Positions 4,009 to 41,355 of a stretch of DNA of 64,000 nt are shown here, piece by piece (position 1 is the first letter of the stretch; every line of letters starts with the position of its first letter). Origin of the DNA: Desulfosporosinus youngiae DSM 17734 (GTDB taxonomy: Bacteria; Bacillota; Desulfitobacteriia; Desulfitobacteriales; Desulfitobacteriaceae); contig NZ_CM001441.1 of the NCBI RefSeq assembly GCF_000244895.1, forward strand, positions 1,364,001 through 1,428,000, written 5' to 3'. The notes beneath the pieces were generated by a model. The model saw only the letters and a program-made list of their open reading frames with translations. It made no database searches and was not told where the DNA came from. Both the position numbers and the translations under genes were made by a program.

Positions 4009-4146
4009 TTTCAAAATCAACGGATATCAAGGAGTGGGTAATACACGGCCAGCCTGTCAAAGACAGCAGACGTTGGCTTTGCCATACTCAATCCGAATGA
4101 AGCATTCTATGCCAATTCTATCCCTGTTGAGTTGTTTGATAAGTAA
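3969..4146 (+). pseudogene. C-terminal remnant of an unidentified gene
   Basis: From the point where the truncated methyltransferase loses homology, a different frame reads coherent protein (SDQDAKASNTLISKSTDIKE, then WVIHGQPVKDS to about 4065). After a frame change it continues as DVGFAILNPNEAFYANSIPV and ELFDK up to TAA at 4144-4146. This suggests a deletion joined the 5' part of the methyltransferase gene to the 3' end of another gene that then acquired a frameshift. I do not recognise its family. Confidence 0.35.
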
Positions 4147-4218
4147 GGAATTCTAGGAAAGCATCGAAAACTAAGGAAAATCAAAGGAAGTCAAACGATA
4201 GTATAGGGAGGATTTGCT

Positions 4219-5292: not shown

Positions 5293-5343
5293 AACTGATC
5301 ATTAATAGAACTGATTTTAGAAAGTAAGGTGGAGGTAAACATT

Positions 5344-6003
5344 ATGGCGAAGTCAAAAGAAGAATTATTACAACAATTATCGGATTGTGTATTCAAAATG
5401 GAAGATGATACTGCGGCAGATGTAGCCAACGAATATATAGATGCAGGCTATGAAGCGCTTGACGGGGTTCTTAAAGGGCTTGTTGACGGGATGAACCGTG
5501 CCGGCCAAATGTATGAAGAGGAAGAGTATTTCGTCACCGACCTTTTGGTGTGTTCCGATGCGATGTATAACGGTTTAGAAGTCTTAAAGCCTCATCTGCC
5601 GAAGGAGGAGGGTGCCGACGCTGTCAATTACAAATGCGTTATCGGCGTGGTAGAAGGGGATACCCATGATATCGGTAAAAATCTTGTGCGGATTATGCTG
5701 GAGACGGCAGGATTTGAAATGTACGATTTGGGCAGAGATGTGCCGCTGCCAAGTTTCGTAGAAAAAGCTAAGGACGTGAATGCGCAGCTGATATGTCTTT
5801 CCACCCTTATGACTACCACCATGCCTGGCATGAAAGAAGTCGTAGATATGCTAAAAAAAGAAGGACTTAAAGATAAAGTAAAAGTCATGATCGGCGGCGG
5901 GCCTATTTCCCAGGCTTATTGTGATCAAATCAGCGCTGATGGTTATGCCGTCAATGCTATCGGAGCGGTTTCCCTGGCCAAAGAATTGGTGGGAATGGCT
6001 TAA
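5344..6003 (+). CDS. Methyltransferase corrinoid protein (MtaC/MtbC-like)
   Basis: Carries the corrinoid cofactor that shuttles the methyl group between the methyltransferases on either side. An N-terminal helical cap domain (about residues 1-90) is followed by a B12-binding Rossmann domain with the classic DTHDIG motif at 106-111; His108 is the lower cobalt ligand. The LSTLMTTTMPGM segment and the GGGP near the C-terminus are the other cofactor-contacting loops. Length 219 residues is typical. I chose ATG 5344 because GGTGGAGG sits at the right distance; an upstream GTG at 5329 overlaps that site. Cofactor supply likely depends on the cob genes near 26 kb and the activator at 7094. Confidence 0.9.
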   Translation: MAKSKEELLQQLSDCVFKMEDDTAADVANEYIDAGYEALDGVLKGLVDGMNRAGQMYEEEEYFVTDLLVCSDAMYNGLEVLKPHLPKEEGADAVNYKCVIGVVEGDTHDIGKNLVRIMLETAGFEMYDLGRDVPLPSFVEKAKDVNAQLICLSTLMTTTMPGMKEVVDMLKKEGLKDKVKVMIGGGPISQAYCDQISADGYAVNAIGAVSLAKELVGMA

Positions 6004-6028
6004 ACATTAGAGCAAGGAAGGACTACCT

Positions 6029-7057
6029 ATGGATTCAAAGGAAAGATTATTAAATGCTTTAAAAGGTGCGAAGACCGATCGCTCACCATGTATCTGCCCA
6101 GGCGGAATGATGAATATGGTGGTCACCGCTTTGATGGAAAAAGCAAATATTCGCTGGCCTGAAGCACATACAGATCCTGTTAAAATGGCGGGATTAGCTA
6201 AGGCAGTCTATGATTATGGCTGCTTTGAAAATTATGGTGTGCCCTTCTGTATGACCATCGAAGCAGAACAGCTGGGTGCCGTCGTGGACTTAGGTTCCAC
6301 TATCTGCGAACCTCATGTTACAGGCTATGTCATCGATAACCCTTCCCAATGGAGGGAATTAACACCGTTTAATCCCTATGGCGAACGGACCAAAGTGGTG
6401 CTGGAGGCTATTAAAATTCTCAAACAAGCTGAGGACCATGTACCTATTATCGGTAATCTCTCCGGGCCTGTAAGTGTTGCCGCTTCTCTGATGGAACCGG
6501 TAAATTACTACAAAGCGTTGAGACGCAATAAAGAGGATGCCCATGCCTTCATGAAGTTTGTTACTGAAGCGCTCATTGATTTCGGCAAGGCTCAGATCGA
6601 AGCGGGAGCAGATGTAATAGCTGTCTCTGATCCCAGCGGCACAGGGGAAATCCTAGGTCCCCGTTTATTTGATGAATATGTGGTGACCTATGTGAATCAG
6701 TTGATTGATGGGCTTCACGAGATGAATCCGGAACTGCCAGTCATTGTGCACATTTGCGGGAAAATGCATAAAGTTTATGGGGAACTGAATAAAATACGCG
6801 CCGATGCCCATAGCTTTGACTCGGTTGTCAGCATCAAAGAGTCGAAAAAAATGATGCCTGCCAAGGTTATGATCGGTAATGTAAGTACCTATGCTCTGGA
6901 GTTTGCTGATACTGACCGCATTCGCCTCATGACCCGTAAGGTGATGGCTGATGGGTCAGATATCATCGCGCCTGCTTGTGGTCTGGGAACCAAGTCCTCT
7001 CTCGAAAATATTCAGGCGATGTTACAGACCGTGCAGGAAAGCAGTCATAAAGCCTAG
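6029..7057 (+). CDS. UroD-family corrinoid methyltransferase (MtaA-like)
   Basis: Third UroD-type methyltransferase of the operon, full length at 342 residues. It begins with the usual KERLLNALKGAKTDRSP opening and shows the His-x-Cys zinc motif HICGKM near residue 245 and a C-terminal Cys in APACGLG near 315, the probable third ligand. The GNLSGPVSVAASLMEP and SDPSGTGEILGPRLF stretches are family hallmarks. It starts 26 bases after the corrinoid gene with an AAGGAAGG site. With no MtaB-, MttB- or MtrH-type partner in the operon, one of the UroD-type proteins probably does the substrate:corrinoid step and another the methyl acceptor step, as in CmuA-like systems. Substrate unknown. Confidence 0.85.
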   Translation: MDSKERLLNALKGAKTDRSPCICPGGMMNMVVTALMEKANIRWPEAHTDPVKMAGLAKAVYDYGCFENYGVPFCMTIEAEQLGAVVDLGSTICEPHVTGYVIDNPSQWRELTPFNPYGERTKVVLEAIKILKQAEDHVPIIGNLSGPVSVAASLMEPVNYYKALRRNKEDAHAFMKFVTEALIDFGKAQIEAGADVIAVSDPSGTGEILGPRLFDEYVVTYVNQLIDGLHEMNPELPVIVHICGKMHKVYGELNKIRADAHSFDSVVSIKESKKMMPAKVMIGNVSTYALEFADTDRIRLMTRKVMADGSDIIAPACGLGTKSSLENIQAMLQTVQESSHKA

Positions 7058-7093
7058 GATCTTGAGAGTTTGTACCGGAAGACGAGGTTAAGA

Positions 7094-8902
7094 ATGCATA
7101 CAATTAAGTTGCCAAGACTAGATTTAACGTTTCCATATGATATAAAGGCGGAGGAAAGCCTCTTAGCTATTCTTGTCGCCCAGCAGATTTTCATTGAAAG
7201 CCCCTGTAACGGAAGAAGAAGCTGCGGCAAGTGTAAAATCAAACATTTAGGAGGGGATCTTCCGCCTCTGTCTGCTGATGAGGAAAAGCTTCTTTCTAAA
7301 AAGGAGATCAGGGATGGCATCCGTTTAGCCTGCCTCATCTATCCGACAACGGATCTGCAGATCGACATTATTGATCAGGAGAAAAATCACCAGGTTCTGA
7401 CAGGGGGCTATGTGCCGGACTATCAACCCAACCCGGCGATCTGGAAAAAGACCATCGAGATCAGAAAGCCTACCCTTAAAGACCAGACCCCTTATGAAGC
7501 TCTAATCGAAAAAGCCCTGGGGATCAAACGCCTGCCCTGGGATGTGCTCCGCCAAATCACCATGGGGGAGGGGACTTACACTGCGGTTTTCAATCAGGAT
7601 CAGCTTATCGGTATTGAAAAAGGGGATACCACTGAGAGGATTTACGGAGTTGCAGTCGATATCGGTACGACCACGGTTGTAACCTCCCTCATAAATTTAA
7701 GGACAGGGGAAGAAATTGATAGCGAAGCTGGGATCAATGCCCAGAAAAATTATGGGCAGGATGTGCTGACCCGCATCACCTATGTTCTCGATCATGGTAA
7801 GAACGGACTGGATCAGTTACAGAAGGCCATTGTCGACTCCTTAAATGAGATGATCCGGACCATGTGTGAAAGGCAGCAGCTTTCGCCTTCCTTTATCTAT
7901 GAAATTGCCGTTGCGGCTAATTGCACGATGATGCATATGGTTCTGGGGGTTGATCCCCTGTCGATTGGCAAATCTCCTTATGCGCCGGTCTTTGTCGATG
8001 AGAAAGATATTCCGGGGATAGATATTGGCTTGACGGCCCTTTCCTCTTTTGGCCGGGTCTATTGCCTGCCGGCGGTCTCCTCCTATATTGGAGCAGATAT
8101 TGTAGCCGGGGCTTATGTGGCAAAGCTCCATGACCGGAAGGATAAAGTGCTCTTTATCGATATCGGTACTAATGGAGAGATTGTTCTGTCCAGCGGGGGG
8201 AAATTAGTGTCCTGTTCCTGCGCAGCAGGACCGGCCCTTGAAGGGATGAATATCAGCAGCGGTATGCGTGCCGCCGATGGGGCCATTGAGGACGTTCACT
8301 TCGCCGGAGAAAAGGGCTTTGATCTAAAGGTTATCGGAAATAAAGCACCAGTGGGCTTATGTGGCAGCGGGATATTGGCAGTTATCCGGGAATTATTGAA
8401 ACATCATTTCGTCAATGCCCGGGGAAATATCCTTAAGCCTGAGGAACTGGAGGCGGGGGACCCTAGGCTGCCCTATATTGATCTTGACGGCAGGAAACGA
8501 CGAATTTGTATTGGAAAGGGTTCAGACAAAATCCTGATTACCCAAGGGGATATTCGCCAGGTCCAACTGGCAAAGAGTGCGATTTTATCAGGGTTTGTGG
8601 CACTGGTAAATGCTATGGACCTCACATTGCCGGAGCTGGATGAGGTAATCGTCGCCGGTCAGTTCGGCGCGCATCTTCCTGTAGAAAGCTTAGTAGGCAC
8701 GGGTATTCTGCCCGGGGCTGTAAACGATAAGATTACCTATATCGGCAATTCTTCAAAAACAGGGGCCTATTTAGCCTTGATGTCTCTTAAAACCCGTCAG
8801 GAGATGGCAGCGCTGGCCAGGGCTTTCGAATATATCGAACTAAGCGTAACAAAAGGGTATGAACGATTATTTGTTGACTGCTCCCAGTTTAACGTGAACT
8901 AG
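7094..8902 (+). CDS. Corrinoid activation/regeneration protein (ASKHA, 2Fe-2S; RACE family)
   Basis: Reductively reactivates corrinoid proteins that have slipped to the inactive Co(II) state, using ATP. The N-terminal ~95 residues form a plant-type 2Fe-2S domain with C-x5-C-x2-C (residues 38, 44, 47) and a later Cys in LACLIY. A linker and an ASKHA-type ATPase region follow, with AVDIGTTTV near 195 and FIDIGTNGEIVLSSGG near 355, plus the SCSCAAGPALEG and GLCGSG motifs typical of the DUF4445 domain. About 602 residues, normal for the family. ATG 7094 is preferred over TTG 7070 because GAGG is correctly spaced before it. It follows the methyltransferases directly, so they are its likely clients. 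Confidence 0.9.
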   Translation: MHTIKLPRLDLTFPYDIKAEESLLAILVAQQIFIESPCNGRRSCGKCKIKHLGGDLPPLSADEEKLLSKKEIRDGIRLACLIYPTTDLQIDIIDQEKNHQVLTGGYVPDYQPNPAIWKKTIEIRKPTLKDQTPYEALIEKALGIKRLPWDVLRQITMGEGTYTAVFNQDQLIGIEKGDTTERIYGVAVDIGTTTVVTSLINLRTGEEIDSEAGINAQKNYGQDVLTRITYVLDHGKNGLDQLQKAIVDSLNEMIRTMCERQQLSPSFIYEIAVAANCTMMHMVLGVDPLSIGKSPYAPVFVDEKDIPGIDIGLTALSSFGRVYCLPAVSSYIGADIVAGAYVAKLHDRKDKVLFIDIGTNGEIVLSSGGKLVSCSCAAGPALEGMNISSGMRAADGAIEDVHFAGEKGFDLKVIGNKAPVGLCGSGILAVIRELLKHHFVNARGNILKPEELEAGDPRLPYIDLDGRKRRICIGKGSDKILITQGDIRQVQLAKSAILSGFVALVNAMDLTLPELDEVIVAGQFGAHLPVESLVGTGILPGAVNDKITYIGNSSKTGAYLALMSLKTRQEMAALARAFEYIELSVTKGYERLFVDCSQFNVN

Positions 8903-29929: not shown

Positions 29930-31282
29930 ATAGACGGTCTGCTCTGGAGTAGCATAAAGGTTCTAATTGCTTTCTTGTTGGTGGGTTTAAACGGTCTTTT
30001 CGTAGCTGCTGAATTTTCGATGGTTAAAGTACGTAAAACCCGTTTGGCAGAACTCGCAGAGAATGGTTCCCGGAGAGCAAAAAGCGCACTTGACGTGACC
30101 TCGCAACTCGATGCTTACCTTTCAGCCTGTCAACTGGGGATCACCCTTGCTTCGTTAGGTCTGGGCTGGCTTGGAGAACCGGCGATCGCGAGCCTGATCG
30201 AGCCCTTGTTCGCGGGGATAGGCGGCTGGAATCCGATCTACACTCATTCGATTGCCATAGCAATAGCCTTTACGATCATCTCGTTCTTACACATTGTCCT
30301 GGGAGAGCTTGTTCCCAAATCATTGGCAATTCAAAATGCCGAGGGCATTGCCCTGGCTTGTGCAGGATTCCTGAAGTTTTTCTATTGGCTGTTATATCCG
30401 GTTATTTGGGCTCTTAATAGCATAGCTAATGTCGTGCTGCGCATTTGGGGAATTGAACCGGCCAACGAAGCCGATTTATCTCATAGTGAAGAAGAACTGA
30501 GAATGTTGGTCGATGCCAGCCAAAAGCATGGATATCTGGATAAATTAGAAGGAAAGCTTTTAGACAATGTCTTTGAGTTTTCGGACAGGATTGCCAGTGA
30601 AGTCATGATTCCGCGCCAGGATATGATATGTATCTTCATACAGGATTCATTTGAGGAAATCCTGGAAATCGTCAAAGAATATGGACATACGCGTTATCTG
30701 CTGTGTGATGATGATAAAGATCACGTACTTGGCCTGGTTCATATGCGGGACATTATCCGGCTGCAGGAACAGCCGGGCAGTAAGGATATTAGTCAGATCA
30801 AACGAGATATTCTGGCTGTGCCTGAGGGTATGCCGATTTCTCATTTGGTACAAAGAATGCGGAGTCAACGAACCCATATGGCGGTTGTTGTGGATGAGTT
30901 TGGGGGATCAGCCGGACTTGTCACCCTTGAAGATATGCTGGAGGAATTAGTCGGAGAAATTTATGATGAATTTGAGATGGAACAACCGCCTGTTCAGAAG
31001 CTTGCGGAGAATGAATATGTGTTTAATGGACGTGTTCTTTTGGAAGAAGTATCAGAAATGCTTAACATTCAATTAGAAGAAGAAACAGTCTCTACCATCG
31101 GAGGATATGTATTTTCCAGGTTAGGGCGCAAGCCTGTCAAAGGGGATGCCGTTTATTTTGATGGCTTCCATTTTGAGGTTATGGAAGTTATGGGCTTTAG
31201 AATTACGAAGGTAATGGTAAAAAACAAAGATCAAGAAGCTGATAATCCCCGTGGGGTGAGTGAAGTACACGAAGCGGTTTGA
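29930..31282 (+). CDS. CNNM/CorC-type (hemolysin family) ion transporter, copy 1
   Basis: About 450 residues: a DUF21/CNNM membrane domain (about 1-190) with GLNGLFVAAEFSMVKVRKTRLAEL and LGLGWLGEPAIA, a CBS pair (about 210-335) with MIPRQDM and the FGGSAGLVTLEDMLEELVGEI signature, and a C-terminal CorC/HlyC domain. Family members export or regulate Mg2+/Co2+. No ATG, GTG or TTG lies at a sensible distance from the strong AAAAAGGAGG; the paralogue next door conserves the same N-terminus from an ATA codon, so I placed the start at ATA 29930 (ATC 29927 is possible). TTG 29975 would cut into the first helix. Confidence 0.8.
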   Translation: MDGLLWSSIKVLIAFLLVGLNGLFVAAEFSMVKVRKTRLAELAENGSRRAKSALDVTSQLDAYLSACQLGITLASLGLGWLGEPAIASLIEPLFAGIGGWNPIYTHSIAIAIAFTIISFLHIVLGELVPKSLAIQNAEGIALACAGFLKFFYWLLYPVIWALNSIANVVLRIWGIEPANEADLSHSEEELRMLVDASQKHGYLDKLEGKLLDNVFEFSDRIASEVMIPRQDMICIFIQDSFEEILEIVKEYGHTRYLLCDDDKDHVLGLVHMRDIIRLQEQPGSKDISQIKRDILAVPEGMPISHLVQRMRSQRTHMAVVVDEFGGSAGLVTLEDMLEELVGEIYDEFEMEQPPVQKLAENEYVFNGRVLLEEVSEMLNIQLEEETVSTIGGYVFSRLGRKPVKGDAVYFDGFHFEVMEVMGFRITKVMVKNKDQEADNPRGVSEVHEAV

Positions 31283-31372: not shown

Positions 31373-32713
31373 ATAGACGGACTGTTTTGGAGTGTCATAA
31401 TGATCCTGATTGCGTTCTTGTTAGTCGGGTTAAATGGATTTTTTGTGGCTGCCGAATTTTCCCTGGTTAAAGTACGGAAGACACGTTTAGCAGAACTTGC
31501 GGAGAATGGTTCTTCGAGAGCACAAACTGCCCTTGATGTTACTTCGCACCTGGATGCTTACCTTTCTGCCTGTCAACTGGGGATTACCCTCGCTTCCTTG
31601 GGTTTAGGCTGGATTGGTGAACCGGCGATTGCTTCACTCATCGAACCGCTGTTTGCCGGGATAGCCGGTTGGAACTCTATTTACACCCATACTATCTCAA
31701 TAACTATAGCCTTTTCGATCATCTCATTATTACACATTGTCTTGGGTGAACTTGTTCCTAAGTCACTGGCAATTCAAAAGTCGGAGAGTACGGCACTTGC
31801 CACAGCCGGGTTTTTGAAAGCTTTTTACTGGATCTGTTATCCGGTTATTCGGGCACTCAATGGCTTAGCTAATCTTGTCTTGCGTTTGTTAAGAATTGAA
31901 CCTGCTAACGAGGCTGATCTGTCTCATAGCGAAGAAGAACTGAGAATGTTAGTCGATGCCAGTCAGAAGCACGGCTATTTGGATAAATTAGAGGGTAAAC
32001 TGTTGGACAACGTCTTTGAATTTTCCGATCGCAATGCCAGCGAAGTCATGGTACCACGGCAAGATATGGTATGTCTCTTCATACAGGACGACTTTGAGGA
32101 GATTCTTGAGGTTATTAAGAAGCATGGGCATACGCGTTATCTGCTCTGTGATGATGATAAGGACAATGTGCTTGGCCTGGTCCATATGCGGGATATTATT
32201 CGCTTGCAGGAACAATCAGGCGCTAAGGATATTACTCAGATTAAGCGGGATATCCTGGCCGTTCCTGAGGGTATGCCGATTTCTCATCTGGTACAAAGAA
32301 TGCGGAGTCAACGAACCCATATGGCGGTTGTCGTGGATGAATTCGGAGGATCAGCCGGACTGGTCACCCTTGAAGATATGCTGGAAGAATTAGTCGGAGA
32401 AATCTATGATGAATTTGAGATGGAACAGCCGCCTATTCAGCGGCTTGCGGAAAACGAATATGTGCTTAATGGGCGTGTCCTTATGGAAGAAGTTTCTGAA
32501 ATGCTTGATATTCAATTAGAGGAAGAAACTGTCACCACCATTGGGGGATATGTATTTTCCAGGTTGGGACGCAAGCCTGTCAAAGGGGATGTCATCTATT
32601 TTGAGGGGATTCAGTTTGAAGTTATGGAGGTTATGGGATTTAGAATTACTAAAGTAAAGGTTCTGAGAAAGCCCCCCGAACCAAAGGCCAGGGAAGAATC
32701 CGGCGAGGATTAA
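31373..32713 (+). CDS. CNNM/CorC-type (hemolysin family) ion transporter, copy 2
   Basis: A tandem duplicate of the gene before it, very similar over the whole length, with the same CNNM membrane domain, CBS pair and CorC/HlyC tail. The tail differs in its last ~15 residues. After AAAAGGAGG comes TAA (31364-31366) in frame, then AGA ATT ATA GAC GGA CTG; the first standard start, ATG 31400, is 30 bases past the ribosome site. Conservation of the I/M-D-G-L-x-W-S segment with copy 1 argues that translation begins at ATA 31373 or ATT 31370. Confidence 0.8.
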   Translation: MDGLFWSVIMILIAFLLVGLNGFFVAAEFSLVKVRKTRLAELAENGSSRAQTALDVTSHLDAYLSACQLGITLASLGLGWIGEPAIASLIEPLFAGIAGWNSIYTHTISITIAFSIISLLHIVLGELVPKSLAIQKSESTALATAGFLKAFYWICYPVIRALNGLANLVLRLLRIEPANEADLSHSEEELRMLVDASQKHGYLDKLEGKLLDNVFEFSDRNASEVMVPRQDMVCLFIQDDFEEILEVIKKHGHTRYLLCDDDKDNVLGLVHMRDIIRLQEQSGAKDITQIKRDILAVPEGMPISHLVQRMRSQRTHMAVVVDEFGGSAGLVTLEDMLEELVGEIYDEFEMEQPPIQRLAENEYVLNGRVLMEEVSEMLDIQLEEETVTTIGGYVFSRLGRKPVKGDVIYFEGIQFEVMEVMGFRITKVKVLRKPPEPKAREESGED

Positions 32714-32788: not shown

Positions 32789-34675
32789 TTAATGGAATCT
32801 GATCTTATTTTCCAGTAACCAGAAATTCGTTTGAATCAAATAGGCGAAGAGCTGCGGAAGATCCATTAATTGGCCAAACCAAGGACGGCCTGAAGGGATC
32901 GTATCTGAGAGCTTCATTAAATCCTTTAAAGCAGGTAGATTCAGAAAGGGAAGAATCGGCGAGCTTTTGTCTGCCATGATTTCTTGCAGCCATGTCCGGA
33001 CAGCTAAGAGGTAACTGGGGTGATGAGTTTTTGGATAGGGGCTTTTGCGACGCCAAAGCACATCGTCGGGTAAGACCCCGGTGAGAGCACGTCGCAGGAG
33101 TCCTTTTTCTCTGCCCTCCAGGGCTTTCATTTCCCAAGGAATATTCCAGGCATATTCGACTAAGCGATGATCACAGAAGGGAACACGTACCTCTAATCCC
33201 GCGGCCATGGTCATGCGGTCTTTCCGATCAAGGAGAGTGGGCATGAAACGGGTTAGGGTTAAATAGGTAATTTCGCGAATGCGGGCTTCCCGCTGAAGAT
33301 CCCCCTTGACAGTCCGGCTGTCTTGGTGAACAATGGAGGAACCTGGTAACCCGGAAATCTCGGCAAGGGCCTCTTCATAACGTTCCTGCAAATAATCATG
33401 AGGCTGAAGATGTTCAATAAGGTCCGGGGAAAGCACTTCCAGACGATTCTCCACATTCAGGGCCCAGGGAAAGGCTTGTGCCTCCAGTGAGTCCCGGCGG
33501 TGAAACCAAGGGTATCCGCCGAACACTTCATCGGCACATTCACCGGACAAACCGACAGTCACCGTTTTCTTAATTTCACGTGAAAAGAGCAGTAATGAAG
33601 CATCTACATCGGCCATTCCCGGAAGATCCCGAGCAAGTGTTGACTCTTTGAGTGCTTGAACTAGTTCGGGAATATTAAATTTACAGTTCTTATGCTGGGT
33701 TCCGAATGCTTGGGACATTCGCTCAATCCAGGGACCATCCGCACCAGGTTGGAAGGCATTAGGATGAAAATATTTATCATTCTCATCAAAGTCGACAGAA
33801 AAGGTTGGCAAAACCTCTTGATCATTTTGGGCCAGGGATTTGGCAGCGATCGCAGTAATCGCACTTGAATCCAAACCTCCGGAGAGCAGGGTGCCGATCG
33901 GCACATCTGAGACCAGTTGACGCTGGACAGTATCGAGAAAAAGCTCACGAATCCTGGCTATGGTCGTTTCTAAATCATCTTCATGGGGGTTATTAGGTAA
34001 GGCCCAATATCTGCGAATCTGCAGTCCGTTGGCAGAATATAAAAGGACATGCCCCGGCTTTAATTCAGATATCCCCTCGAAGACACCTGTCCCGGGACTG
34101 CGGGCCGGTCCGACGAGGAAGATTTCCGACAAGCCTTCTTTGCCGAGAATGGGAGAAATATCAGGGTGTTTTAATAATGCTTTCAGCTCGGAAGCGAAAA
34201 CCAGGGAATTAGTTTGTGCAGAGTAAAAGAGCGGCTTAACCCCTAAGCGATCACGGGCAACAAACAATCGTTGTTCTTTACTGTCCCAAATTCCAAAGGC
34301 GAAAATTCCATTGAGACGCTCGACGCAGGAGGGGCCCCATTCCAAGTAGGATAGCAGTACGGCTTCTGTATCCGAATGACCTTCGAAACGGTAACCGCGG
34401 CTCAGAAGTTCTTGACGGATTTCGGGCGTGTTATAAAGCTCACCGTTATAGATGAGGGTATAGGTATGTTCACCACGCCGGCGAATCATGGGCTGACGGC
34501 CTCCTTGAGGATCAACGACAACCAGCCGTCTATGTCCGAAAGCCGCACGAGGGGAAAGCCAGTATCCTTCTGCATCAGGACCTCGCGGGATTAGAGTATG
34601 GGTCATGTTTATCAGAACGTCTTCTTGAAGAGTTAAATCATGAGTCCAATTTACGATGCCTGCAATACCACACAT
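32789..34675 (-). CDS. asnB: Asparagine synthase (glutamine-hydrolysing)
   Basis: 628 residues. The start is fixed by MCGIAGIV: after Met removal Cys becomes the N-terminal nucleophile of the class II glutaminase domain (about 1-200), which also shows RGPDAEGYW, HRRLVVVD and YNGELYN. The synthetase domain follows with the PP-loop SGGLDSSA near residue 255, GLSGECADEVFGGY and RKDRMTMAAGLEVRVPFCDH. It converts aspartate and glutamine to asparagine, or amidates another carboxylate. A longer upstream frame would overlap the palindrome 34703-34715. Monocistronic. Confidence 0.92.
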   Translation of the reverse strand: MCGIAGIVNWTHDLTLQEDVLINMTHTLIPRGPDAEGYWLSPRAAFGHRRLVVVDPQGGRQPMIRRRGEHTYTLIYNGELYNTPEIRQELLSRGYRFEGHSDTEAVLLSYLEWGPSCVERLNGIFAFGIWDSKEQRLFVARDRLGVKPLFYSAQTNSLVFASELKALLKHPDISPILGKEGLSEIFLVGPARSPGTGVFEGISELKPGHVLLYSANGLQIRRYWALPNNPHEDDLETTIARIRELFLDTVQRQLVSDVPIGTLLSGGLDSSAITAIAAKSLAQNDQEVLPTFSVDFDENDKYFHPNAFQPGADGPWIERMSQAFGTQHKNCKFNIPELVQALKESTLARDLPGMADVDASLLLFSREIKKTVTVGLSGECADEVFGGYPWFHRRDSLEAQAFPWALNVENRLEVLSPDLIEHLQPHDYLQERYEEALAEISGLPGSSIVHQDSRTVKGDLQREARIREITYLTLTRFMPTLLDRKDRMTMAAGLEVRVPFCDHRLVEYAWNIPWEMKALEGREKGLLRRALTGVLPDDVLWRRKSPYPKTHHPSYLLAVRTWLQEIMADKSSPILPFLNLPALKDLMKLSDTIPSGRPWFGQLMDLPQLFAYLIQTNFWLLENKIRFH

Positions 34676-34702
34676 TTTAATGTCCTCCTTCATCTTGGTA
34701 AA

Positions 34703-34715
34703 GATAATCATTATC
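34703..34715. promoter_or_regulatory. Fur-box-like palindrome upstream of asnB
   Basis: GATAATCATTATC is a perfect palindrome identical to the core of the Fur operator, 28 bases before the asnB start. It may control asnB or be chance in AT-rich DNA. Confidence 0.35.
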
Positions 34716-34808
34716 AACTAACCACGATACAATCTATGTTTCTTACAGGCAAAGGGTTACCGGATTAAATTAAACGTTCGGGATTACGGCTTAGAGGAGG
34801 GGAGTTTT

Positions 34809-36008
34809 TTGCCAAACATTCACTATGACCCTGAGCGGATTCTCAATGGATTTACTGAAGAAAGTCTGAAAGATATAGCAAAGCGGTTGAAACGAAGAAT
34901 AAGGGTTAAAAAAAGCGATGTCATTGAGGATATTTTAGCTCTGCCTAAAGGCAAACCTGCTGACATAGGCAAGGTTTGGCAAGAAATCAATCGAAGTTTA
35001 AGAAGGGAATTGGAAGAGTTCTCCCTAAAGGGAAGCGAAGTTTTTCCTCCCATTGAAATGCCAAAAGAGGAGCAATTCAAGGTTAGTTATATGTTCACTT
35101 TGAGCTCGAACCCTGAGATTAGAGCAGCGGGAGAAAAATTATATTGTCAGGCCCAGGAAGCCGAGCCGGAGAAGGACGAATATATAAGACCGGAGGTAAT
35201 GGCCGGCAAGCTGGGAGAATTGCCCCGCATTGGAGATGAACGCTTGATAGCTGAAAAAAATGAAATAGAACAAATAGAAGCAAGTGAGGTCATAGACTCT
35301 ATTGTCGGAGAAGTGAGAAGCTCGTTAGAGGTTCCGGAAGTTGAAATGAAGCAAGTTAAAGGTGCAGAGGACAAACCAAAAATGATAAATAGCAACACAA
35401 AGGATAAAGTGTATTCCAGACGACAGGGGACAACAGAAACCTTCGAACTCCAAAAGAAACTAAAGAATCTGGAACGGAAATTGAGAAAAACATATTCGGA
35501 AGGACTAAGTACCAGAGAGCAACTGGAAAATCTGAAAGGTGAATTGACCGCCTTAAGAGTTCAATTGCATAAGGAAAAAGAGGAAAATGAAAACTATCGT
35601 CATCAGGTTCAAGTGCTTGAAGCGGAACGAATAGGAAAAAACAGAGAAATAGAATTATTGAAAAAGAAACTGGAACAATTGCAATACAATGACCTGCTGC
35701 AGATTAGGATTGAACAAAATGCTAAATTGGACCTTGCGGCCTACTACGGCAGGAAAGCGTTGATTTTTGCCGAACATGATCATGATCTGGACAGCAGACT
35801 GAATGCCTTGGGTATCATCCCAATCTGGGCCATGGAAATTGATTGGAATCGTCCAAGACGCAGAATGTCAACTTGTCAAATAGTTCTTTATAAAATGGAT
35901 AGCGAGAAACTAAAAAAACTTGAAGAGATTCGAGAAATCGCCAGGTACCTGAATGTTCCGTGCAGCGAGCTCTTGGATGTAGTAGGAGGCAGTGATGATC
36001 AGAGATAG
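34809..36008 (+). CDS. Coiled-coil protein of the McrBC-like operon
   Basis: 399 residues. The first ~45 residues (FTEESLKDIAKRLKRRIRVK…) look like a small helical nucleic-acid-binding module of the SAP/Rho-N kind. A charged linker follows, then a strong coiled coil at about 212-300 with heptad-like Leu/Glu/Lys pattern. The C-terminal ~95 residues (KALIFAEHDHDLDSRLNALG…, VPCSELLDVVGG) predict as an alpha/beta fold, perhaps DUF2325-like. I do not recognise the whole protein. TTG start with a strong GAGGAGGGGAG. It overlaps the McrB-like gene, so the three genes form an operon. Confidence 0.7.
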   Translation: MPNIHYDPERILNGFTEESLKDIAKRLKRRIRVKKSDVIEDILALPKGKPADIGKVWQEINRSLRRELEEFSLKGSEVFPPIEMPKEEQFKVSYMFTLSSNPEIRAAGEKLYCQAQEAEPEKDEYIRPEVMAGKLGELPRIGDERLIAEKNEIEQIEASEVIDSIVGEVRSSLEVPEVEMKQVKGAEDKPKMINSNTKDKVYSRRQGTTETFELQKKLKNLERKLRKTYSEGLSTREQLENLKGELTALRVQLHKEKEENENYRHQVQVLEAERIGKNREIELLKKKLEQLQYNDLLQIRIEQNAKLDLAAYYGRKALIFAEHDHDLDSRLNALGIIPIWAMEIDWNRPRRRMSTCQIVLYKMDSEKLKKLEEIREIARYLNVPCSELLDVVGGSDDQR

Positions 36009-38070
36009 CAGAATTTGGAACTCAATTATTATTGGGAAACCAGTTATTGAGAGCATTGATGTCGATATAAACTCCCAGTCGCTGCGCATGCAAGTCAATA
36101 TGATTTCCATTTTACCGGATAGTTTACACAAGGCCTTAGATGGAAGACGGCAAATAACCATTTGGGGCAAGGATTTAATGTTAGCCGGATTTCCGGACGA
36201 ACTTGTGACGACCTCTCATTTTCGGCAGTATGAAATCAATGAAGGCCGCAAAGCACGAGCCAAAGAATTTTTTAAAACACGGCTACTCTCGTTTACAGTA
36301 GAAGCTGTTAAGAAAGACACCTACCGAGTGTATTTTAACGGAAAGAATGTTGCCTTTCATGAGACTCCCGTTCAATTTAATCCGTTGACATCTCAATTCA
36401 CACCCATACCTATTATTGCTAAAGACGTGCCGGTTGAGCATGTCTGCAAGATTTTTTACGAGAAGCACCCTTCGGTTGACTTTATTTCCTATCAATACCC
36501 TGAGGATCCGCCCTTAGTCATTGGCTATCAGAAACATTTTTTTGGATGCCAGTCCGGCTGGCTGGGTGAACTTAAGCAGCACTGGCGCATCTATTGTCCG
36601 GATGGGGAAGAAGTGACCTGTGTCCCGGCTCAAATACCGGAAAGTCAAATTCTCCGGCGTGGTACCTTAGCCTTTTTACTGGATGAGGATTTAAATGGAA
36701 TCAGTCAGCAAATCTTAAATTGCAAGCCCTTTCCAAGTAATGAATTCATCAAGTGCTTTGGTGCGGCGGCTCAAGCCAATACAGCAGACCGTGCGCTGCA
36801 ATCAGAAAAAGCTGAGCCTAAAGCAACCGCTGTTTTCCTCCCTTCAATGACCGATGAGGGCAGGAGTAAGGGGTCTGATGAAGGTCAAACCGAGCCCCCT
36901 GTCATAGTGGATAATGGGGAGCAGACATTTATTAATGATCTGAATCACGTAGCCCTATCAAATCAGTTGGTGTACGATATGGAGGACCTTGTCAATTTTC
37001 ATATAGCGATTAAAACCGGTTCCTTAGTTGTTTTGGCCGGAATGTCCGGGGTTGGCAAATCTCAGCTGGTCATTAACTATGCCCGAGCGTTAGGTCTCTC
37101 AGGAGTGGATGAAGCCGGTGAAGAACGTAAACAGTTTTTATTTATTCCGGTTCGTCCCAGCTGGAATGACGACGCGGATTTAATCGGCTTTTATGATGCA
37201 ATTCACAAAATTTACAGACCGGCGGAAACCGGACTCGTTGATTTGCTTATAGAAGCAGCGAAAGAAGATAACAAAGATAAACTCTATCTCATTTGCTTTG
37301 ATGAAATGAATCTGGCCCGGGTTGAACATTACTTCAGTCAATTTTTAAGCATATTGGAGCTTGTAGATGATCGCTATTTAACCTTATACAGCGAAAAGCT
37401 GGCTCCCGAGGTGTATAACCGGCACGAGTATTCGCCGCGGGTTCCGATTGGGAATAATGTATTTTTTGTGGGCACGGTCAATATTGATGAATCTTCCTTT
37501 CAATTTAGTGATAAGGTTCTTGACCGGGCGAATGTCATTAACCTCAAAATTTTTGAGTCCTTACGCGCTTGGAAAATGAAGTTTGAAGAGAAAACCGTCG
37601 GCAAAACATCCGAAGAAGGGGCACAACTATCCCCTGTACCGGGCAATGTCTTTTCTTCCTGGTGTAATAATTCAGTGACCGAGATTGGCTTGACTGATCT
37701 TGAAATTGACTTTCTGGATGAGTTGAATTCAGCGCTGCGCAAAATTGATAAAGACCGGGTAATAGGTTATCGGATTATTCGTCAAATTGGATCCTACCTC
37801 AAGAACATTCCTTCCAGCAACGAAGGGAAGGGGCTTCTCGACCGCGGTAAGGCCTTTGATCTTCAACTGGTACAGCGAATCATGACCAAGTTTAAAGGCT
37901 CGGAATCCGATTTGGAACCATTCTTAGGTAAATACCCGGAACGCGAACAAGCTGCCAGTCAAATCCTTAAATTATTTGATAAGTATTCCGAAGTTTCGAC
38001 CTTTAGCTATTCCCGGGATGTTTGCCATAAAAAAGCAAAGGAACTTTTGGATCATGGCTATGCATCTTGA
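35995..38070 (+). CDS. McrB-like AAA+ ATPase with novel N-terminal region
   Basis: About 691 residues. The C-terminal half is an AAA+ motor of the McrB type: Walker A GMSGVGKS near residue 347, PVRPSWNDDADLIGFYD, Walker B LICFDEMNLARVEHYFSQFL near 430 and the sensor-like GTVNIDES near 492. McrB proteins normally use GTP to translocate DNA and recruit the McrC nuclease. The ~300-residue N-terminal region, rich in aromatic and basic residues, matches no recognition domain I know (not an evident DUF3578, EVE or YTH). GTG 35992 and ATG 35995 both follow GGAGG; overlap with the genes on both sides suggests coupled translation. Confidence 0.85.
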   Translation: MIRDSRIWNSIIIGKPVIESIDVDINSQSLRMQVNMISILPDSLHKALDGRRQITIWGKDLMLAGFPDELVTTSHFRQYEINEGRKARAKEFFKTRLLSFTVEAVKKDTYRVYFNGKNVAFHETPVQFNPLTSQFTPIPIIAKDVPVEHVCKIFYEKHPSVDFISYQYPEDPPLVIGYQKHFFGCQSGWLGELKQHWRIYCPDGEEVTCVPAQIPESQILRRGTLAFLLDEDLNGISQQILNCKPFPSNEFIKCFGAAAQANTADRALQSEKAEPKATAVFLPSMTDEGRSKGSDEGQTEPPVIVDNGEQTFINDLNHVALSNQLVYDMEDLVNFHIAIKTGSLVVLAGMSGVGKSQLVINYARALGLSGVDEAGEERKQFLFIPVRPSWNDDADLIGFYDAIHKIYRPAETGLVDLLIEAAKEDNKDKLYLICFDEMNLARVEHYFSQFLSILELVDDRYLTLYSEKLAPEVYNRHEYSPRVPIGNNVFFVGTVNIDESSFQFSDKVLDRANVINLKIFESLRAWKMKFEEKTVGKTSEEGAQLSPVPGNVFSSWCNNSVTEIGLTDLEIDFLDELNSALRKIDKDRVIGYRIIRQIGSYLKNIPSSNEGKGLLDRGKAFDLQLVQRIMTKFKGSESDLEPFLGKYPEREQAASQILKLFDKYSEVSTFSYSRDVCHKKAKELLDHGYAS

Positions 38071-39823
38071 GGACAAAGGAATTTCGATCGTTTTTTACTT
38101 AGGAAGGCAAGACAGTCCCTGTCTGGTTAGTCAGCACAGCGTAATTGAAGTTTTTGAACGGGAAAACCTTTACGTTTCTTATAGTTCAGACGAGAAGGAT
38201 GCCTACCTGTATATCGATGGGTTAGACGGCTATGATTCTTCGCTGCTTCATCTTGATGAAGAAGGGATTCCCTGTTTAAGATCAGGCACCTATCATTTTC
38301 CTCTCTATTGTGATGCCAATGAAGATTACCCGCTGATCCCCGGGGATTATATGGTGTTTGTAAAACGAAAAGGGGAAGTCAGTGATTTAATTGAAGCTAC
38401 ATTGCGGGTCAGACCGAATAACATCACTGAAGACCAGCTGGATGTGATGCGCAATGAGCTTAATGACATGGTTCAGGGGTTAGCCTATGATCAGATGCGT
38501 ACTAGTCATGGGATTAAACTCTGGGGGGAGAACGGTTTACTCCCTACGGTCGTGTTAGCCGAATATGTCCTTTTGAAGTATATGGTTAAAGAACTGGGCT
38601 TACCCCTACAGGACTTGGCGCGTCACCCGGAGCCATTGTTGGAACGCCAGTACCGTGAAGTGAAGTCTAACGTGAATTGTAAACAAGATGGCAAGTCCTA
38701 TCGCTGGTTGTTATCCCTTCAAGGGCAGCGGGCTAATGCAGCGGCTAAAAGTATGGCTCAGCCTGAGGTGATTTTAGGCGTCATCGAACACCTCACCTAC
38801 GATACCCCTGAAAACCGGATGGTTCTGGGATTTCTTCAGTGTGTTTCATCTCAAATGGAATTTGTCTTACGCTCAATCAGGAAGACGATTGCCGAAGAAC
38901 AACGGGCCATCTATTCAAGAGCCCCCTATGCCGACTTGCAAAAATCCACAAGCCATGAAGTGAGAGCTTCGCAGGTGAAAATTGAACGGCTTGAATCCAT
39001 GGAACGGGAAATGAAAAAGGGAATATTCGACGTACAAACTTTTATGGATCACCCTGTATTCAGAGGGCTTAAACCGTTAAAAACCTTCAGTCATTTCTCT
39101 CTGAAGATGCAGCGGGATTGGCGTTACAAGAAAGTAGCTTCCTGGTGGAAGCAGCTGAGAGATCAGGGCTTCGAAATTCCCCAATGTCACGATTTCAAAG
39201 TGCAGTGGAAACGTACGGATGTTTTATATGAATACTGGTGTTACATAAAAACCATCATTGCGTTAGAACAGGTGGGATTCGCCCCGGTTGCCGGTTGGAT
39301 TTATGATGCATCTTATCGGACAAATCAAGAGATAATGTTTCCGGTCCTTCAAGAGGATACTATAGTGGAAATGGTAAAAGGCTTAATCCGGCTCGCAGTG
39401 TCCTTTAATGAGAAAATGCCGCGCGCCAAGCGAAGTGCCATAAGAAACAGCCGGATCCTCTATATGGAAGGAACGAATTATAAACCCGATATTCGAATTG
39501 ATATTTTTATAAGAGATGTGTATAAAGGTTCTATTGTCGTTGATGCCAAGTATCGTAAGAGATTAAATATTTGGAACAATGACAGGGTCGAAGATGACAA
39601 CCGTCCGAAAAATATGAACACCCTGCAGAATTATTCGAACTCCCTGAAGTACGTCGGAGATCCTGCAGGGGTATCCAAGGCAATTAAAGTTATCGCCTTA
39701 CATCCCAGTTATGGATCTGAGATTGAGGAAATCGAAGATACAAATGTCAGTATTATTCAACTGCGGCCGAAAGAACGGCTGACACACTACTCCGGCTATC
39801 TGCAGGGTTTGATCCAAGGCTAG
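38054..39823 (+). CDS. McrC-like DUF2357 nuclease
   Basis: About 589 residues. The central part has the DUF2357 pattern (…LRSIRKTIAEEQRA…, FSLKMQRDWRYKKVASWWKQL). The C-terminal part has a PD-(D/E)XK nuclease core: PDIRIDIFI near 477 and VVDAKYRK near 495 provide the Asp and Asp-x-Lys. McrC homologues cut nucleic acid when driven by their McrB motor. ATG 38054 overlaps the motor gene by 17 bases and has AAAGGA upstream; an open frame extends further up to TTG 37976 but only inside the motor gene. Together with the coiled-coil protein this forms a candidate type IV restriction-like system. Confidence 0.8.
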   Translation: MAMHLEDKGISIVFYLGRQDSPCLVSQHSVIEVFERENLYVSYSSDEKDAYLYIDGLDGYDSSLLHLDEEGIPCLRSGTYHFPLYCDANEDYPLIPGDYMVFVKRKGEVSDLIEATLRVRPNNITEDQLDVMRNELNDMVQGLAYDQMRTSHGIKLWGENGLLPTVVLAEYVLLKYMVKELGLPLQDLARHPEPLLERQYREVKSNVNCKQDGKSYRWLLSLQGQRANAAAKSMAQPEVILGVIEHLTYDTPENRMVLGFLQCVSSQMEFVLRSIRKTIAEEQRAIYSRAPYADLQKSTSHEVRASQVKIERLESMEREMKKGIFDVQTFMDHPVFRGLKPLKTFSHFSLKMQRDWRYKKVASWWKQLRDQGFEIPQCHDFKVQWKRTDVLYEYWCYIKTIIALEQVGFAPVAGWIYDASYRTNQEIMFPVLQEDTIVEMVKGLIRLAVSFNEKMPRAKRSAIRNSRILYMEGTNYKPDIRIDIFIRDVYKGSIVVDAKYRKRLNIWNNDRVEDDNRPKNMNTLQNYSNSLKYVGDPAGVSKAIKVIALHPSYGSEIEEIEDTNVSIIQLRPKERLTHYSGYLQGLIQG

Positions 39824-39956
39824 GCGAAACAGGGGGACAGGTGCACTGTTTTGCCGAGGGGTCAGTTATGATGTCTGGTCATTTTGTCTTGCCAGGCAGT
39901 TCCGTCAACAAAGTTTGATGTCCAATTTTTTTCGTCCAAGGCAAGGAGGGGATTAT

Positions 39957-40160
39957 TTGTATATTGTTGATCGATTTGAAGAGAACTGGGCTATTATTGA
40001 AACCGAAAATCGTACCATGTTTAAATTACCCCGCAGTATATTGCCAATCGATCTGAAAGAAGGGGATGTCATAAACATTCAGGTCAGTATTAATTCTGAA
40101 GCAACAAAGCAGCGTTCGGATAAAGCTAAAAGTCTGTTGGATAACTTTTTCGGTGAGTGA
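39957..40160 (+). CDS. DUF3006 family protein
   Basis: A 67-residue protein of the DUF3006 family (LYIVDRFEENWAIIETENR, then LPIDLKEGDVI and a basic helix). The family often sits beside ComEC-like metallo-beta-lactamase proteins, as here. The start TTG 39957 follows AAGGAGGGG at the right distance and matches the normal family N-terminus; a longer frame from 39915 adds 14 residues not typical of the family. It overlaps the next gene's open frame. Confidence 0.75.
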   Translation: MYIVDRFEENWAIIETENRTMFKLPRSILPIDLKEGDVINIQVSINSEATKQRSDKAKSLLDNFFGE

Positions 40161-40182
40161 ATCAGAAAGGGGTCTGCATAAA

Positions 40183-41355
40183 TTGTCATGTCGTAGAAAG
40201 TGGTTGATCCCAACCATTTTATCCAGTATCGTTCTCGCCGTATTAGTTCTTTCCGGATGCAGCCAAGGGGAAACGGCTCCTGTTGCAACCCCTTCTGTAA
40301 ATCATGGAATATTACAAGTTCATTTCCTGGATGTCGGTCAGGCGGATAGTGCTCTCTTAATTTCTCCCGGCGGAGAGGCGATTCTTATTGATGGCGGAAA
40401 CAATGACGATGGACCAAAGGTGGTTGATTATTTAAAAGCACAGGGGGTCAGAGAGCTTTCTGCCATCGTCGCAACTCATCCTCATGAAGATCACATAGGA
40501 GGATTGGATTCAGTCCTTCAAAGCATACCTACTAAAACCGTCTATATGCCAAATGCTGCTTCTAATACTAGAACCTTCGAAGACTTTATTGCGGCAGTCA
40601 ATACCAGTGGCGCAGAAAAAATTCAGGCCAAATCAGGAGTAAACCTGAACATTCCGGATCTTACAGGGGTGTTTCTGGCACCAAATAATAGCGGTTATAA
40701 AGAACTGAATAATTTCAGTGCCGTTCTAAAAGTGACCTATGGCAAAGTAGCCTTTCTTTTCGAAGGAGATGCCGAAGATATTTCAGAAGCAGAAATGCTG
40801 AAGAACGGACAAGATTTGAAAGCAAATGTGCTTAAAGTAGGCCATCATGGGAGTAACAGTTCAACAACCAGCGGATTTTTGAAAGCTGTAGCTCCACAAC
40901 ATGCCATTATTTCAGTGGGGGCTGATAATGAATACGGTCACCCAACGCCTGCCATCTTGGATAGATTAGCTAAGGCCGGAACCAACGTTTACAGAACGGA
41001 TCAATCAGGAACGATTATTGTCACAACGGATGGAGAATCTATAAAAATTAATAAGACGGATTCAATTGAGCTGTCAGATATTGATCTCCATGGGGAAGTA
41101 GTGACCATAACTAATCGCAGTAATTCGGAGGTCAATCTGTCAGGGTGGAAATTAGTGAGTGAAGTCGGTGATCAAACCTATCATTTTCCATCGGGTACGA
41201 CGGTGACAGCAGGGGGATCGCTTAAAGTTGTCAGCGGGGAAAATGCAGGGGCAGGAGCGGATACACTGGTTTGGACCCAATCAAATATTTGGAACAATAA
41301 TGGTGATCCCGGAGCACTTTACGATAGTCAAGGAAAGTTGGTATCCAAACGATAA
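40183..41355 (+). CDS. Secreted ComEC-like metallo-beta-lactamase lipoprotein with lamin-tail domain
   Basis: About 390 residues. A lipoprotein signal (hydrophobic stretch then LVLSGCSQG, Cys ~25) leads to a metallo-beta-lactamase domain resembling the ComEC/Rec2 nuclease domain: HFLDVGQADSALL, THPHEDHIGGLD (the HxHxDH motif), FEGDAEDI, VGHHGSNSST and GHPTP. A lamin-tail (LTD) domain ends the protein (about 300-390, SWxL-like SGWKLVSEVGD). It may degrade extracellular DNA or another phosphodiester at the cell surface. TTG 40183 is preferred over GTG 40153 because the signal peptide then starts correctly. Confidence 0.85.
   Translation: MSCRRKWLIPTILSSIVLAVLVLSGCSQGETAPVATPSVNHGILQVHFLDVGQADSALLISPGGEAILIDGGNNDDGPKVVDYLKAQGVRELSAIVATHPHEDHIGGLDSVLQSIPTKTVYMPNAASNTRTFEDFIAAVNTSGAEKIQAKSGVNLNIPDLTGVFLAPNNSGYKELNNFSAVLKVTYGKVAFLFEGDAEDISEAEMLKNGQDLKANVLKVGHHGSNSSTTSGFLKAVAPQHAIISVGADNEYGHPTPAILDRLAKAGTNVYRTDQSGTIIVTTDGESIKINKTDSIELSDIDLHGEVVTITNRSNSEVNLSGWKLVSEVGDQTYHFPSGTTVTAGGSLKVVSGENAGAGADTLVWTQSNIWNNNGDPGALYDSQGKLVSKR

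What the first reader, a model, noticed from the sequence alone, without database searches (positions are those of the whole stretch)
34809..39823. Coiled-coil + McrB-like + McrC-like three-gene operon: candidate variant type IV restriction or RNA-targeting defence system
All three genes overlap. The motor has an unusual ~300-residue N-terminus with no known modified-base reader, and the first protein combines a possible nucleic-acid-binding head, a long coiled coil and an unknown alpha/beta tail. Coiled-coil/McrBC associations have been described as CoCoNuT systems, but here the coiled coil is a separate protein, so this may be an undescribed arrangement.
Basis: partly seen in the sequence, partly recalled or inferred. 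Interest (0 to 1): 0.7.

Follow-up and report, generated by a model that had tools for sequence, protein, structure and literature searches.

The report
Type I-B CoCoNuT defence operon
Three overlapping bacterial genes make a motor, a nuclease and a coiled-coil partner that match an already named, computer-predicted antiviral system (Type I-B CoCoNuT), so the arrangement is known although its function remains untested.

Summary
In detail: three overlapping genes at 34809-39823 encode a coiled-coil protein, an McrB-like AAA+ motor and an McrC-like nuclease. The claim of an undescribed arrangement is not. Bell et al. 2024 (PMC11090510) named it: Type I-B CoCoNuT = separate coiled-coil CnuA, CnuB without coiled coil, CnuC; mainly Bacillota. 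Met here: separate coiled coil; NxD motif (80 of 80 related loci); no coiled coil in CnuB; DUF2357 and intact PD-(D/E)xK residues (75 of 75 CnuC rows); Bacillota (Desulfosporosinus). Inconclusive: OB-like barrel (Z below 6), CARD-like head, receiver-like tail, YTH-like domain. New details: a start codon giving exactly 17 nt of cnuB/cnuC overlap in 79 of 80 loci, against 26, 29 or 23 nt in the 14 readable of 17 other NxD relatives; one chromosomal address in Desulfosporosinus with empty sites in relatives; a CnuB N-terminus more conserved than neighbouring AsnB; two natural fusions of CnuA-type head and coiled coil to the motor; and CnuA tails that mostly lack an aspartate where a phosphoacceptor would sit. 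Verdict: divergent member of a known kind, low to moderate interest.

The parts
34809..36008 (+). cnuA: coiled-coil protein, 399 aa, TTG start (most aligned relatives have ATG at the same place)
34809..35153 (+). CnuA head, residues 1-115; weak profile similarity to the N-termini of other CnuA-type proteins
   Evidence: hhalign score 25.8 against a 27-row subset (best of 20 column-shuffled controls 21.7); 23.5 against all 60 rows, no control run for that set; fold not predicted
35421..35708 (+). CnuA coiled coil, residues 205-300
   Evidence: heptad a/d excess 0.40 vs 0.15 shuffled, p about 0.001
35748..36005 (+). CnuA tail, residues 314-399, beta-alpha-beta-beta-alpha order in the model, the best conserved part of CnuA in the genus (median 83% identity over 314-389); RPRRRMSTC invariant in 12 of 12 rows
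   Evidence: fold matches weak
35998..36375 (+). CnuB N-terminal barrel, residues 2-127, OB-like (block pLDDT 79-97)
   Evidence: AlphaFold2; VIA-align best Z 5.9 (9pd3 chain N) and 5.8 (CRHSP-24)
37039..37062 (+). Walker A, GMSGVGKS
37480..37491 (+). NxD(E) signature, N-I-D-E
   Evidence: invariant in 21 of 21 rows; NxD followed by E or D in 80 of 80 genome loci
   Evidence: Pfam hits; start position, compare
39485..39550 (+). PD-(D/E)xK motif PDIRID...VVDAK
   Evidence: aligned D, D/E and K present in 75 of 75 CnuC rows
35995..36008 (+). cnuA/cnuB overlap, 14 nt
38054..38070 (+). cnuB/cnuC overlap, 17 nt, same length across the family
32789..34717 (-). asnB (named from recall of its sequence), divergent neighbour that marks the fixed chromosomal address (flank, not part of the system)
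34740..39957 (.). stretch without counterpart in the empty sites of three relatives (flank homology stops at 34739-34741 and resumes at 39958)

Best explanation
This is a Type I-B CoCoNuT system of a Desulfosporosinus-like bacterium. CnuB forms an AAA+ GTPase ring whose OB-like N-terminal barrel contacts a nucleic acid, most likely RNA or single strands. CnuC docks on the ring through DUF2357, switches on GTP hydrolysis and cuts with its PD-(D/E)xK domain. CnuA is a scaffold or trigger: its coiled coil and small head gather or activate CnuB rings. Shown here: the genes, motifs, operon, conservation and natural fusions. Inferred from homologous McrBC and the published predictions: ring formation, GTP use, activation by CnuC, cleavage, the target and the antiviral role. 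The confidence given is for the identification; the full mechanism I would put near 0.5.
For: Operon plan as described for Type I-B in the paper. NxD followed by E or D in 80 of 80 genome loci. An upstream ORF of at least 290 aa beside cnuB in 66 of 80 (judged by place and length, with shared N- and C-terminal patterns visible by eye, not each verified). The same three-gene plan in the 4 of 4 plasmid records opened. GTPase tree: window inside the set of such operons, separated from 17 other NxD relatives at 100% SH-aLRT. CnuB OB-like barrel. DUF2357 + PDDEXK_7, catalytic residues in 75 of 75. Fusions: the Metalysinibacillus CnuB carries a CnuA-type head and coiled coil before its own N-terminus and GTPase (L154); Neobacillus drentensis carries head and coiled coil directly on the GTPase (L124). 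cnuB/cnuC overlap constant.
Against: No published Type I-B protein was compared directly (only accessions were at hand). Receiver-like tail not shown: AlphaFold2 mean pLDDT 63.9, fold matches mixed (PLP enzymes, siroheme synthase, BRCT, receiver domains, all Z 6.2 or less); no profile similarity to other CnuA tails, receiver domains or DUF2325. YTH-like domain not shown (low confidence over most of 142-306). IG-like domain of CnuC not tested. In a heptad test 45 of 65 CnuA-type ORFs passed and 20 did not. No defence gene was recognised by eye among the ORFs listed at 30-45 kb and 1-24 kb (the rest of the window was not annotated), and the operon keeps one fixed site, unlike a mobile defence cassette.
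Confidence: 0.85

Rival explanations
1. A variant outside Type I-B: a lineage in which CnuA has exchanged its receiver-like tail for a different, basic and highly conserved domain, so that the trigger works differently.
For: The Desulfosporosinus tail shows no profile similarity to 60 other CnuA-type tails (score 11.4, shuffled controls up to 12.1). It is the best conserved part of CnuA in the genus and carries RPRRRMSTC in 12 of 12 rows.
Against: By eye, the order of strands and helices resembles the other tails (model against the alignment printed), and receiver domains are among the weak fold matches (3cg0 Z 5.1, 4b09 Z 4.9). CnuB and CnuC are ordinary for the family.
Confidence: 0.2
2. A domesticated system: in Desulfosporosinus the operon does a resident job (RNA or translation quality control, stress response) rather than phage defence.
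For: Beside asnB in 12 of 13 carriers; presence on the asnB tree needs 4 changes against 8.9 in shuffles. CnuB residues 1-245 have median identity 93% against 84% for AsnB. A precedent for co-opting an McrB protein exists (PcdA, PMC10602043, abstract and one section read).
Against: 16 of 29 genomes of the genus gave no CnuA match, some of them incomplete assemblies, so it is probably dispensable. The nuclease motif is intact. CnuA evolves fast (median 61% identity in 11 carriers; 343-518 aa), as expected of an arms race or of a loose coiled coil. The CnuB/AsnB distance correlation is weak (r 0.33, p 0.07).
Confidence: 0.12
3. A plain McrBC restriction system that cuts DNA with modified cytosine; CnuA is incidental.
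For: McrB/McrC domain pair with intact nuclease residues.
Against: NxD instead of NxxD; no DUF3578 or EVE hit in the N-terminus, though a missing hit is weak evidence; a CnuA-type ORF lies upstream in 66 of 80 loci and CnuA-type parts are fused to the motor in two genomes.
Confidence: 0.05

Closest known systems
Type I-B CoCoNuT (CnuA-CnuB-CnuC; Bell et al. 2024, eLife, PMC11090510)
   Same: Three genes in the same order; separate coiled-coil CnuA with an N-terminal and a C-terminal domain; NxD motor without fused coiled coil; DUF2357-PD-(D/E)xK CnuC; Bacillota.
   Different: CnuA tail and head sequences strongly diverged from the relatives compared here; receiver and YTH-like domains not demonstrated; fixed chromosomal address.
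Pseudo-Type I-B CoCoNuT (same paper)
   Same: Related CnuB and CnuC, Bacillota.
   Different: Lacks CnuA; the window has it.
Escherichia coli K-12 McrBC
   Same: McrB GTPase with McrC DUF2357-nuclease partner.
   Different: NxxD motif and DUF3578 reader (as described in the paper's Figure 1 legend); no coiled-coil gene described there.
PADLOC candidate PDC-M26 (M26A/M26B)
   Same: M26A matches CnuB (6.8e-39); M26B matches the CnuC of two relatives weakly (0.003, 0.005).
   Different: The window's CnuC and one of the three relatives' CnuC tested had no hit at 0.1. One relative's CnuA matched the N-terminal part of M26A weakly (0.0013), so the model probably describes motors with a fused coiled coil (inference).

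Membership tests
Type I-B CoCoNuT | McrB-like GTPase with NxD instead of NxxD | tested here: met
   N496-x-D498-E499 invariant in 21 rows; NxD in 80 of 80 loci
Type I-B CoCoNuT | Separate coiled-coil protein CnuA encoded with cnuB and cnuC | tested here: met
   Heptad test on residues 205-300; best 56-residue stretch of CnuA reached by 3 of 200 shuffles; gene order and overlaps
Type I-B CoCoNuT | No long coiled coil fused to CnuB | tested here: met
   Best heptad stretch in residues 1-312 no better than shuffles (125 of 200 as high); longest helix in the model 20 residues, in a low-confidence part
Type I-B CoCoNuT | Cold-shock-like OB fold at the CnuB N-terminus | tested here: inconclusive
   OB-containing chains lead the list (my reading of the titles), among them CRHSP-24, a cold-shock-domain protein (recalled), Z 5.8, rmsd 3.8, 81 residues; Z below 8 can be a common arrangement; Foldseek best E 0.086
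Type I-B CoCoNuT | YTH-like domain between OB fold and GTPase (often, not always) | tested here: inconclusive
   Most of residues 142-306 low confidence; no EVE or YTH family among the Pfam matches of 44 members
Type I-B CoCoNuT | PYD/CARD-like helical head on CnuA | tested here: inconclusive
   Weak in-register similarity to other CnuA-type heads; fold of the head not predicted
Type I-B CoCoNuT | Receiver (REC)-like C-terminal domain on CnuA | tested here: inconclusive
   Model pLDDT 63.9, mixed matches; no profile similarity
Type I-B CoCoNuT | CnuC with DUF2357 | tested here: met
   PF09823 E 2.8e-12
Type I-B CoCoNuT | IG-like beta-sandwich at the CnuC N-terminus | not tested
Type I-B CoCoNuT | CnuB GTPase in the Type I-B clade | tested here: inconclusive
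   Groups with operons that have a CnuA-type ORF, away from 17 other NxD relatives; no published reference sequence in the tree
Type I-B CoCoNuT | Found mainly in Bacillota | tested here: met
   The 7 nearest named loci are Desulfosporosinus
Escherichia coli-type McrBC | NxxD motif | tested here: not met
   Motif is NID
Escherichia coli-type McrBC | DUF3578 modified-cytosine reader | tested here: inconclusive
   Not among the Pfam hits at E up to 10 in residues 1-300; absence of a hit does not exclude it
Pseudo-Type I-B CoCoNuT | CnuA lost | tested here: not met
   CnuA-type gene present

The most novel reading that the evidence does not exclude
The Desulfosporosinus branch is a resident, vertically inherited Type I-B system in which CnuA has a different, basic, near-invariant C-terminal domain and CnuB reads a conserved host-like RNA; CnuA acts as a trigger not controlled by histidine kinases, and motor and nuclease are held at a set ratio by a fixed 17-nt gene overlap.
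Probability: 0.15. Interest if true: 0.5.

Novelty: new member of a known kind. Interest (0 to 1): 0.22.

Why it matters
No experimental test of a Type I-B CoCoNuT showed up in the listings of four searches (one search listed 20 of 123 papers), so its target and the job of CnuA look open. The locus offers natural handles: empty sites in close relatives, two natural fusions that point to a CnuA-CnuB partnership, a constant gene overlap that suggests coupled translation, and tails that mostly lack an aspartate at the likely phosphoacceptor place, which weakens the published suggestion of histidine-kinase control.

Tried and rejected
Rejected: an undescribed arrangement (published as Type I-B). 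Rejected as evidence: the profile comparison, because alignment A5 contains the window's own CnuA; a direct BLAST of the window's CnuA with one relative gave only a coiled-coil stretch at E 0.037. Rejected: one search's comparisons with receiver and DUF2325 families, because minus-strand members were translated on the wrong strand; repeated, still negative (the best, other CnuA tails against DUF2325, reached 13.5% probability). Rejected: a regular-expression count of nuclease motifs (24 true of 80 rows), too strict; replaced by aligned columns over the window and 74 loci with CnuC ORFs of at least 500 aa.

Led nowhere: Pfam and NCBIfam for CnuA and the CnuB N-terminus; PDB sequence searches with all three proteins; promoter and terminator scan (11 promoter-like sites against 9.1 expected, 4 terminator-like against 4.5); the fold search with the CnuA tail. 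Viral contigs: 3 relatives among 39 pattern matches, one of them (L168) placed within the family tree. The GTPase tree kept 78 of 81 loci (80 genome loci and L168); L158 and L165 lacked the Walker A pattern that I searched for and L093 was too short. The asnB tree holds 26 of 29 genomes with 12 of 13 carriers (G005 has no full asnB match); the RpoB tree holds 26 of 29 with 12 of 13 carriers (G016 came in two pieces). The 17 other NxD relatives used as a contrast were not shown to lack CnuA: only four were read further upstream, of which three had no upstream ORF of 120 aa or more and one had an ORF of 129 aa.
Full report
What is there. Three ORFs at 34809-39823 overlap head to tail. Better starts for the second and third genes are ATG 35995 and ATG 38054, giving overlaps of 14 and 17 nt. 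Gene 1 keeps its TTG start: most relatives begin at that column of the alignment. The genome is 5.66 Mb in one contig, and the seven nearest named loci are Desulfosporosinus.

Gene 1 (cnuA). Residues 205-300 are a coiled coil by heptad periodicity (0.40 against 0.15 in shuffles, p about 0.001); head, middle and tail are not. Among 65 CnuA-type ORFs of the scan, 45 passed a stricter heptad test of their middle and 20 did not. Within the genus (11 carriers) the tail is the best conserved part (median identity 83%), then the head (65%) and the coiled coil (60%); length runs from 343 to 518 aa. The head resembles, weakly but in register, the heads of other CnuA-type proteins (profile score 25.8 against a 27-row subset, at most 21.7 in 20 column-shuffled controls; 23.5 against all 60 rows, no control run). 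The tail shows no profile similarity to 60 other CnuA-type tails (11.4, controls up to 12.1), to receiver domains or to DUF2325. Its model (mean pLDDT 63.9) has beta-alpha-beta-beta-alpha order, and its weak fold matches are a mixture that includes receiver and BRCT domains.

Gene 2 (cnuB). Walker A GMSGVGKS and the signature N-I-D-E place it in the NxD branch of McrB-like GTPases as described in PMC11090510 (sections 6-8 read, other passages seen). Residues 2-127 form a confident barrel that aligns best to chains with OB folds, among them RPA, SSB and CRHSP-24 (Z 5.9 or less). Most of residues 142-306 is poorly modelled, so a YTH-like domain is neither shown nor excluded. There is no coiled-coil signal in residues 1-312 (125 of 200 shuffles as high).

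Gene 3 (cnuC). DUF2357 and a PD-(D/E)xK domain, with the catalytic D, D/E and K aligned in 75 of 75 rows (window and 74 loci).

What it is. The CoCoNuT paper describes Type I-B as a separate coiled-coil CnuA with a PYD/CARD-like head and a REC tail, a CnuB usually with an OB fold and no coiled coil, and a CnuC, mainly in Bacillota. The window fits this plan on every feature that could be tested firmly; head, tail, OB and YTH-like assignments stay inconclusive, and the IG-like domain was not tested. In a tree of GTPase domains the window lies among operons with an upstream CnuA-type ORF, and 17 other NxD relatives form a separate group (SH-aLRT 100). Of 80 genome loci, 66 have an upstream ORF of at least 290 aa (303-490 aa) that was not seen to be something else, 6 begin too close to a contig end to tell, 5 of a Veillonellaceae-related group have none, 2 have CnuA-type parts fused to CnuB, and 1 (L165) has none that long. 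The four plasmid records opened (of 271 with a match) show the same three-gene order.

Things that I did not see in the passages read. (1) A start codon that gives cnuC exactly 17 nt of overlap with cnuB is present in 79 of 80 loci (76 ATG, 2 TTG, 1 GTG); the exception, L093, has a shortened CnuB ORF of 611 aa. Of 17 other NxD relatives, 14 could be read: the overlapping ATG nearest the stop lies at 26 nt in 10, 29 nt in 3 and 23 nt in 1, and none of the 17 has a start codon at 17 nt. The frame relation is the same, the length differs by group. This suggests coupled translation; it may also be plain inheritance. The paper mentions overlapping frames only for other gene pairs in the passages found. 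(2) Two fusions: Metalysinibacillus (L154) has a CnuA-type head and coiled coil, then the CnuB N-terminus and GTPase; Neobacillus drentensis (L124) has head and coiled coil directly on the GTPase. Both lack the tail. This is the best evidence that CnuA works on the CnuB ring. (3) In 60 other CnuA-type tails (59 genome loci and one viral contig), an aspartate occurs in the three columns closing the likely third strand in only 4; if those columns are the phosphoacceptor site, control by histidine kinases is unlikely for most. The assignment of columns is mine. (4) In the genus the operon sits directly beside divergent asnB in 12 of 13 carriers; the thirteenth (G005) has no full asnB match (six of these regions, window excluded, compared). 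Relatives G017, G018 and G021 have asnB followed by the window's downstream genes with about 300 nt between, and coordinates suggest the same for G026; G007 has an efflux operon at the site. Downstream of cnuC the carriers compared differ from each other. Presence needs 4 changes on the asnB tree (shuffled mean 8.9, 0 of 500 as low) and 5 on the poorly resolved RpoB tree (3 of 500), consistent with old residence and repeated loss. CnuB distances correlate only weakly with AsnB (r 0.33, p 0.07), CnuC distances better (r 0.61, p 0.001). (5) CnuB residues 1-245 (median identity 93%) and the GTPase (91%) are more conserved than AsnB (84%), while the linker is free (44%): the N-terminus seems to see a constant target rather than a changing phage mark (inference).

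Mechanism. Most likely a GTP-driven ring (CnuB) that engages nucleic acid through an OB-like barrel, is activated by CnuC and cuts through its nuclease, and is gathered or triggered by CnuA. Everything beyond sequence, model and comparative evidence is inference from McrBC and from the paper's predictions. No experiment on a Type I-B system appeared in the listings of four literature searches; besides PMC11090510 I saw passages of PMC12458937 and PMC12707154 and the abstract and one section of PMC10602043.

Verdict. A real, well-conserved, already named system; a divergent genus-level member with some useful new details. Not a new arrangement.

Noticed in passing
L118, L133, L148, L151, L162: A Veillonellaceae-related CnuB group (with L141, cut by the contig end) has no CnuA-type ORF upstream; possibly another CnuA-less branch besides the Bacillus Pseudo-Type I-B.
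   Followed up: partly
L124:5014-7095 and L154:5074-7686: Natural fusions of CnuA-type head and coiled coil to the CnuB motor, both without the CnuA tail.
   Followed up: partly
L147: A Type I-B-like operon on a contig binned as Methanobrevibacter (archaeon); could be transfer or mis-binning.
   Followed up: no
L168 (viral contigs): A Type I-B-like operon with an upstream CnuA-type ORF on a 120-kb contig of the viral collection.
   Followed up: no
29975-31282 and 31400-32713: Two tandem, very similar CBS-domain membrane proteins (CNNM/HlyC-CorC type, named from recall); tandem pairs also in four relatives compared.
   Followed up: partly
40153-41355: Metallo-beta-lactamase-fold protein (ComEC-like, from recall) with a C-terminal segment that looks like a lamin-tail domain; matches in 29 of 29 genomes of the genus, many of them distant (about 35% identity inside longer frames).
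   Followed up: no
L262:7370-12413: In G007 the same address between asnB and the downstream genes holds a regulator and an RND-type efflux pair (named from recall) instead of cnuABC.
   Followed up: partly
3130-8902: Cluster of corrinoid/methyltransferase-type proteins followed by a ferredoxin-type activator, as in O-demethylation clusters (from recall).
   Followed up: no
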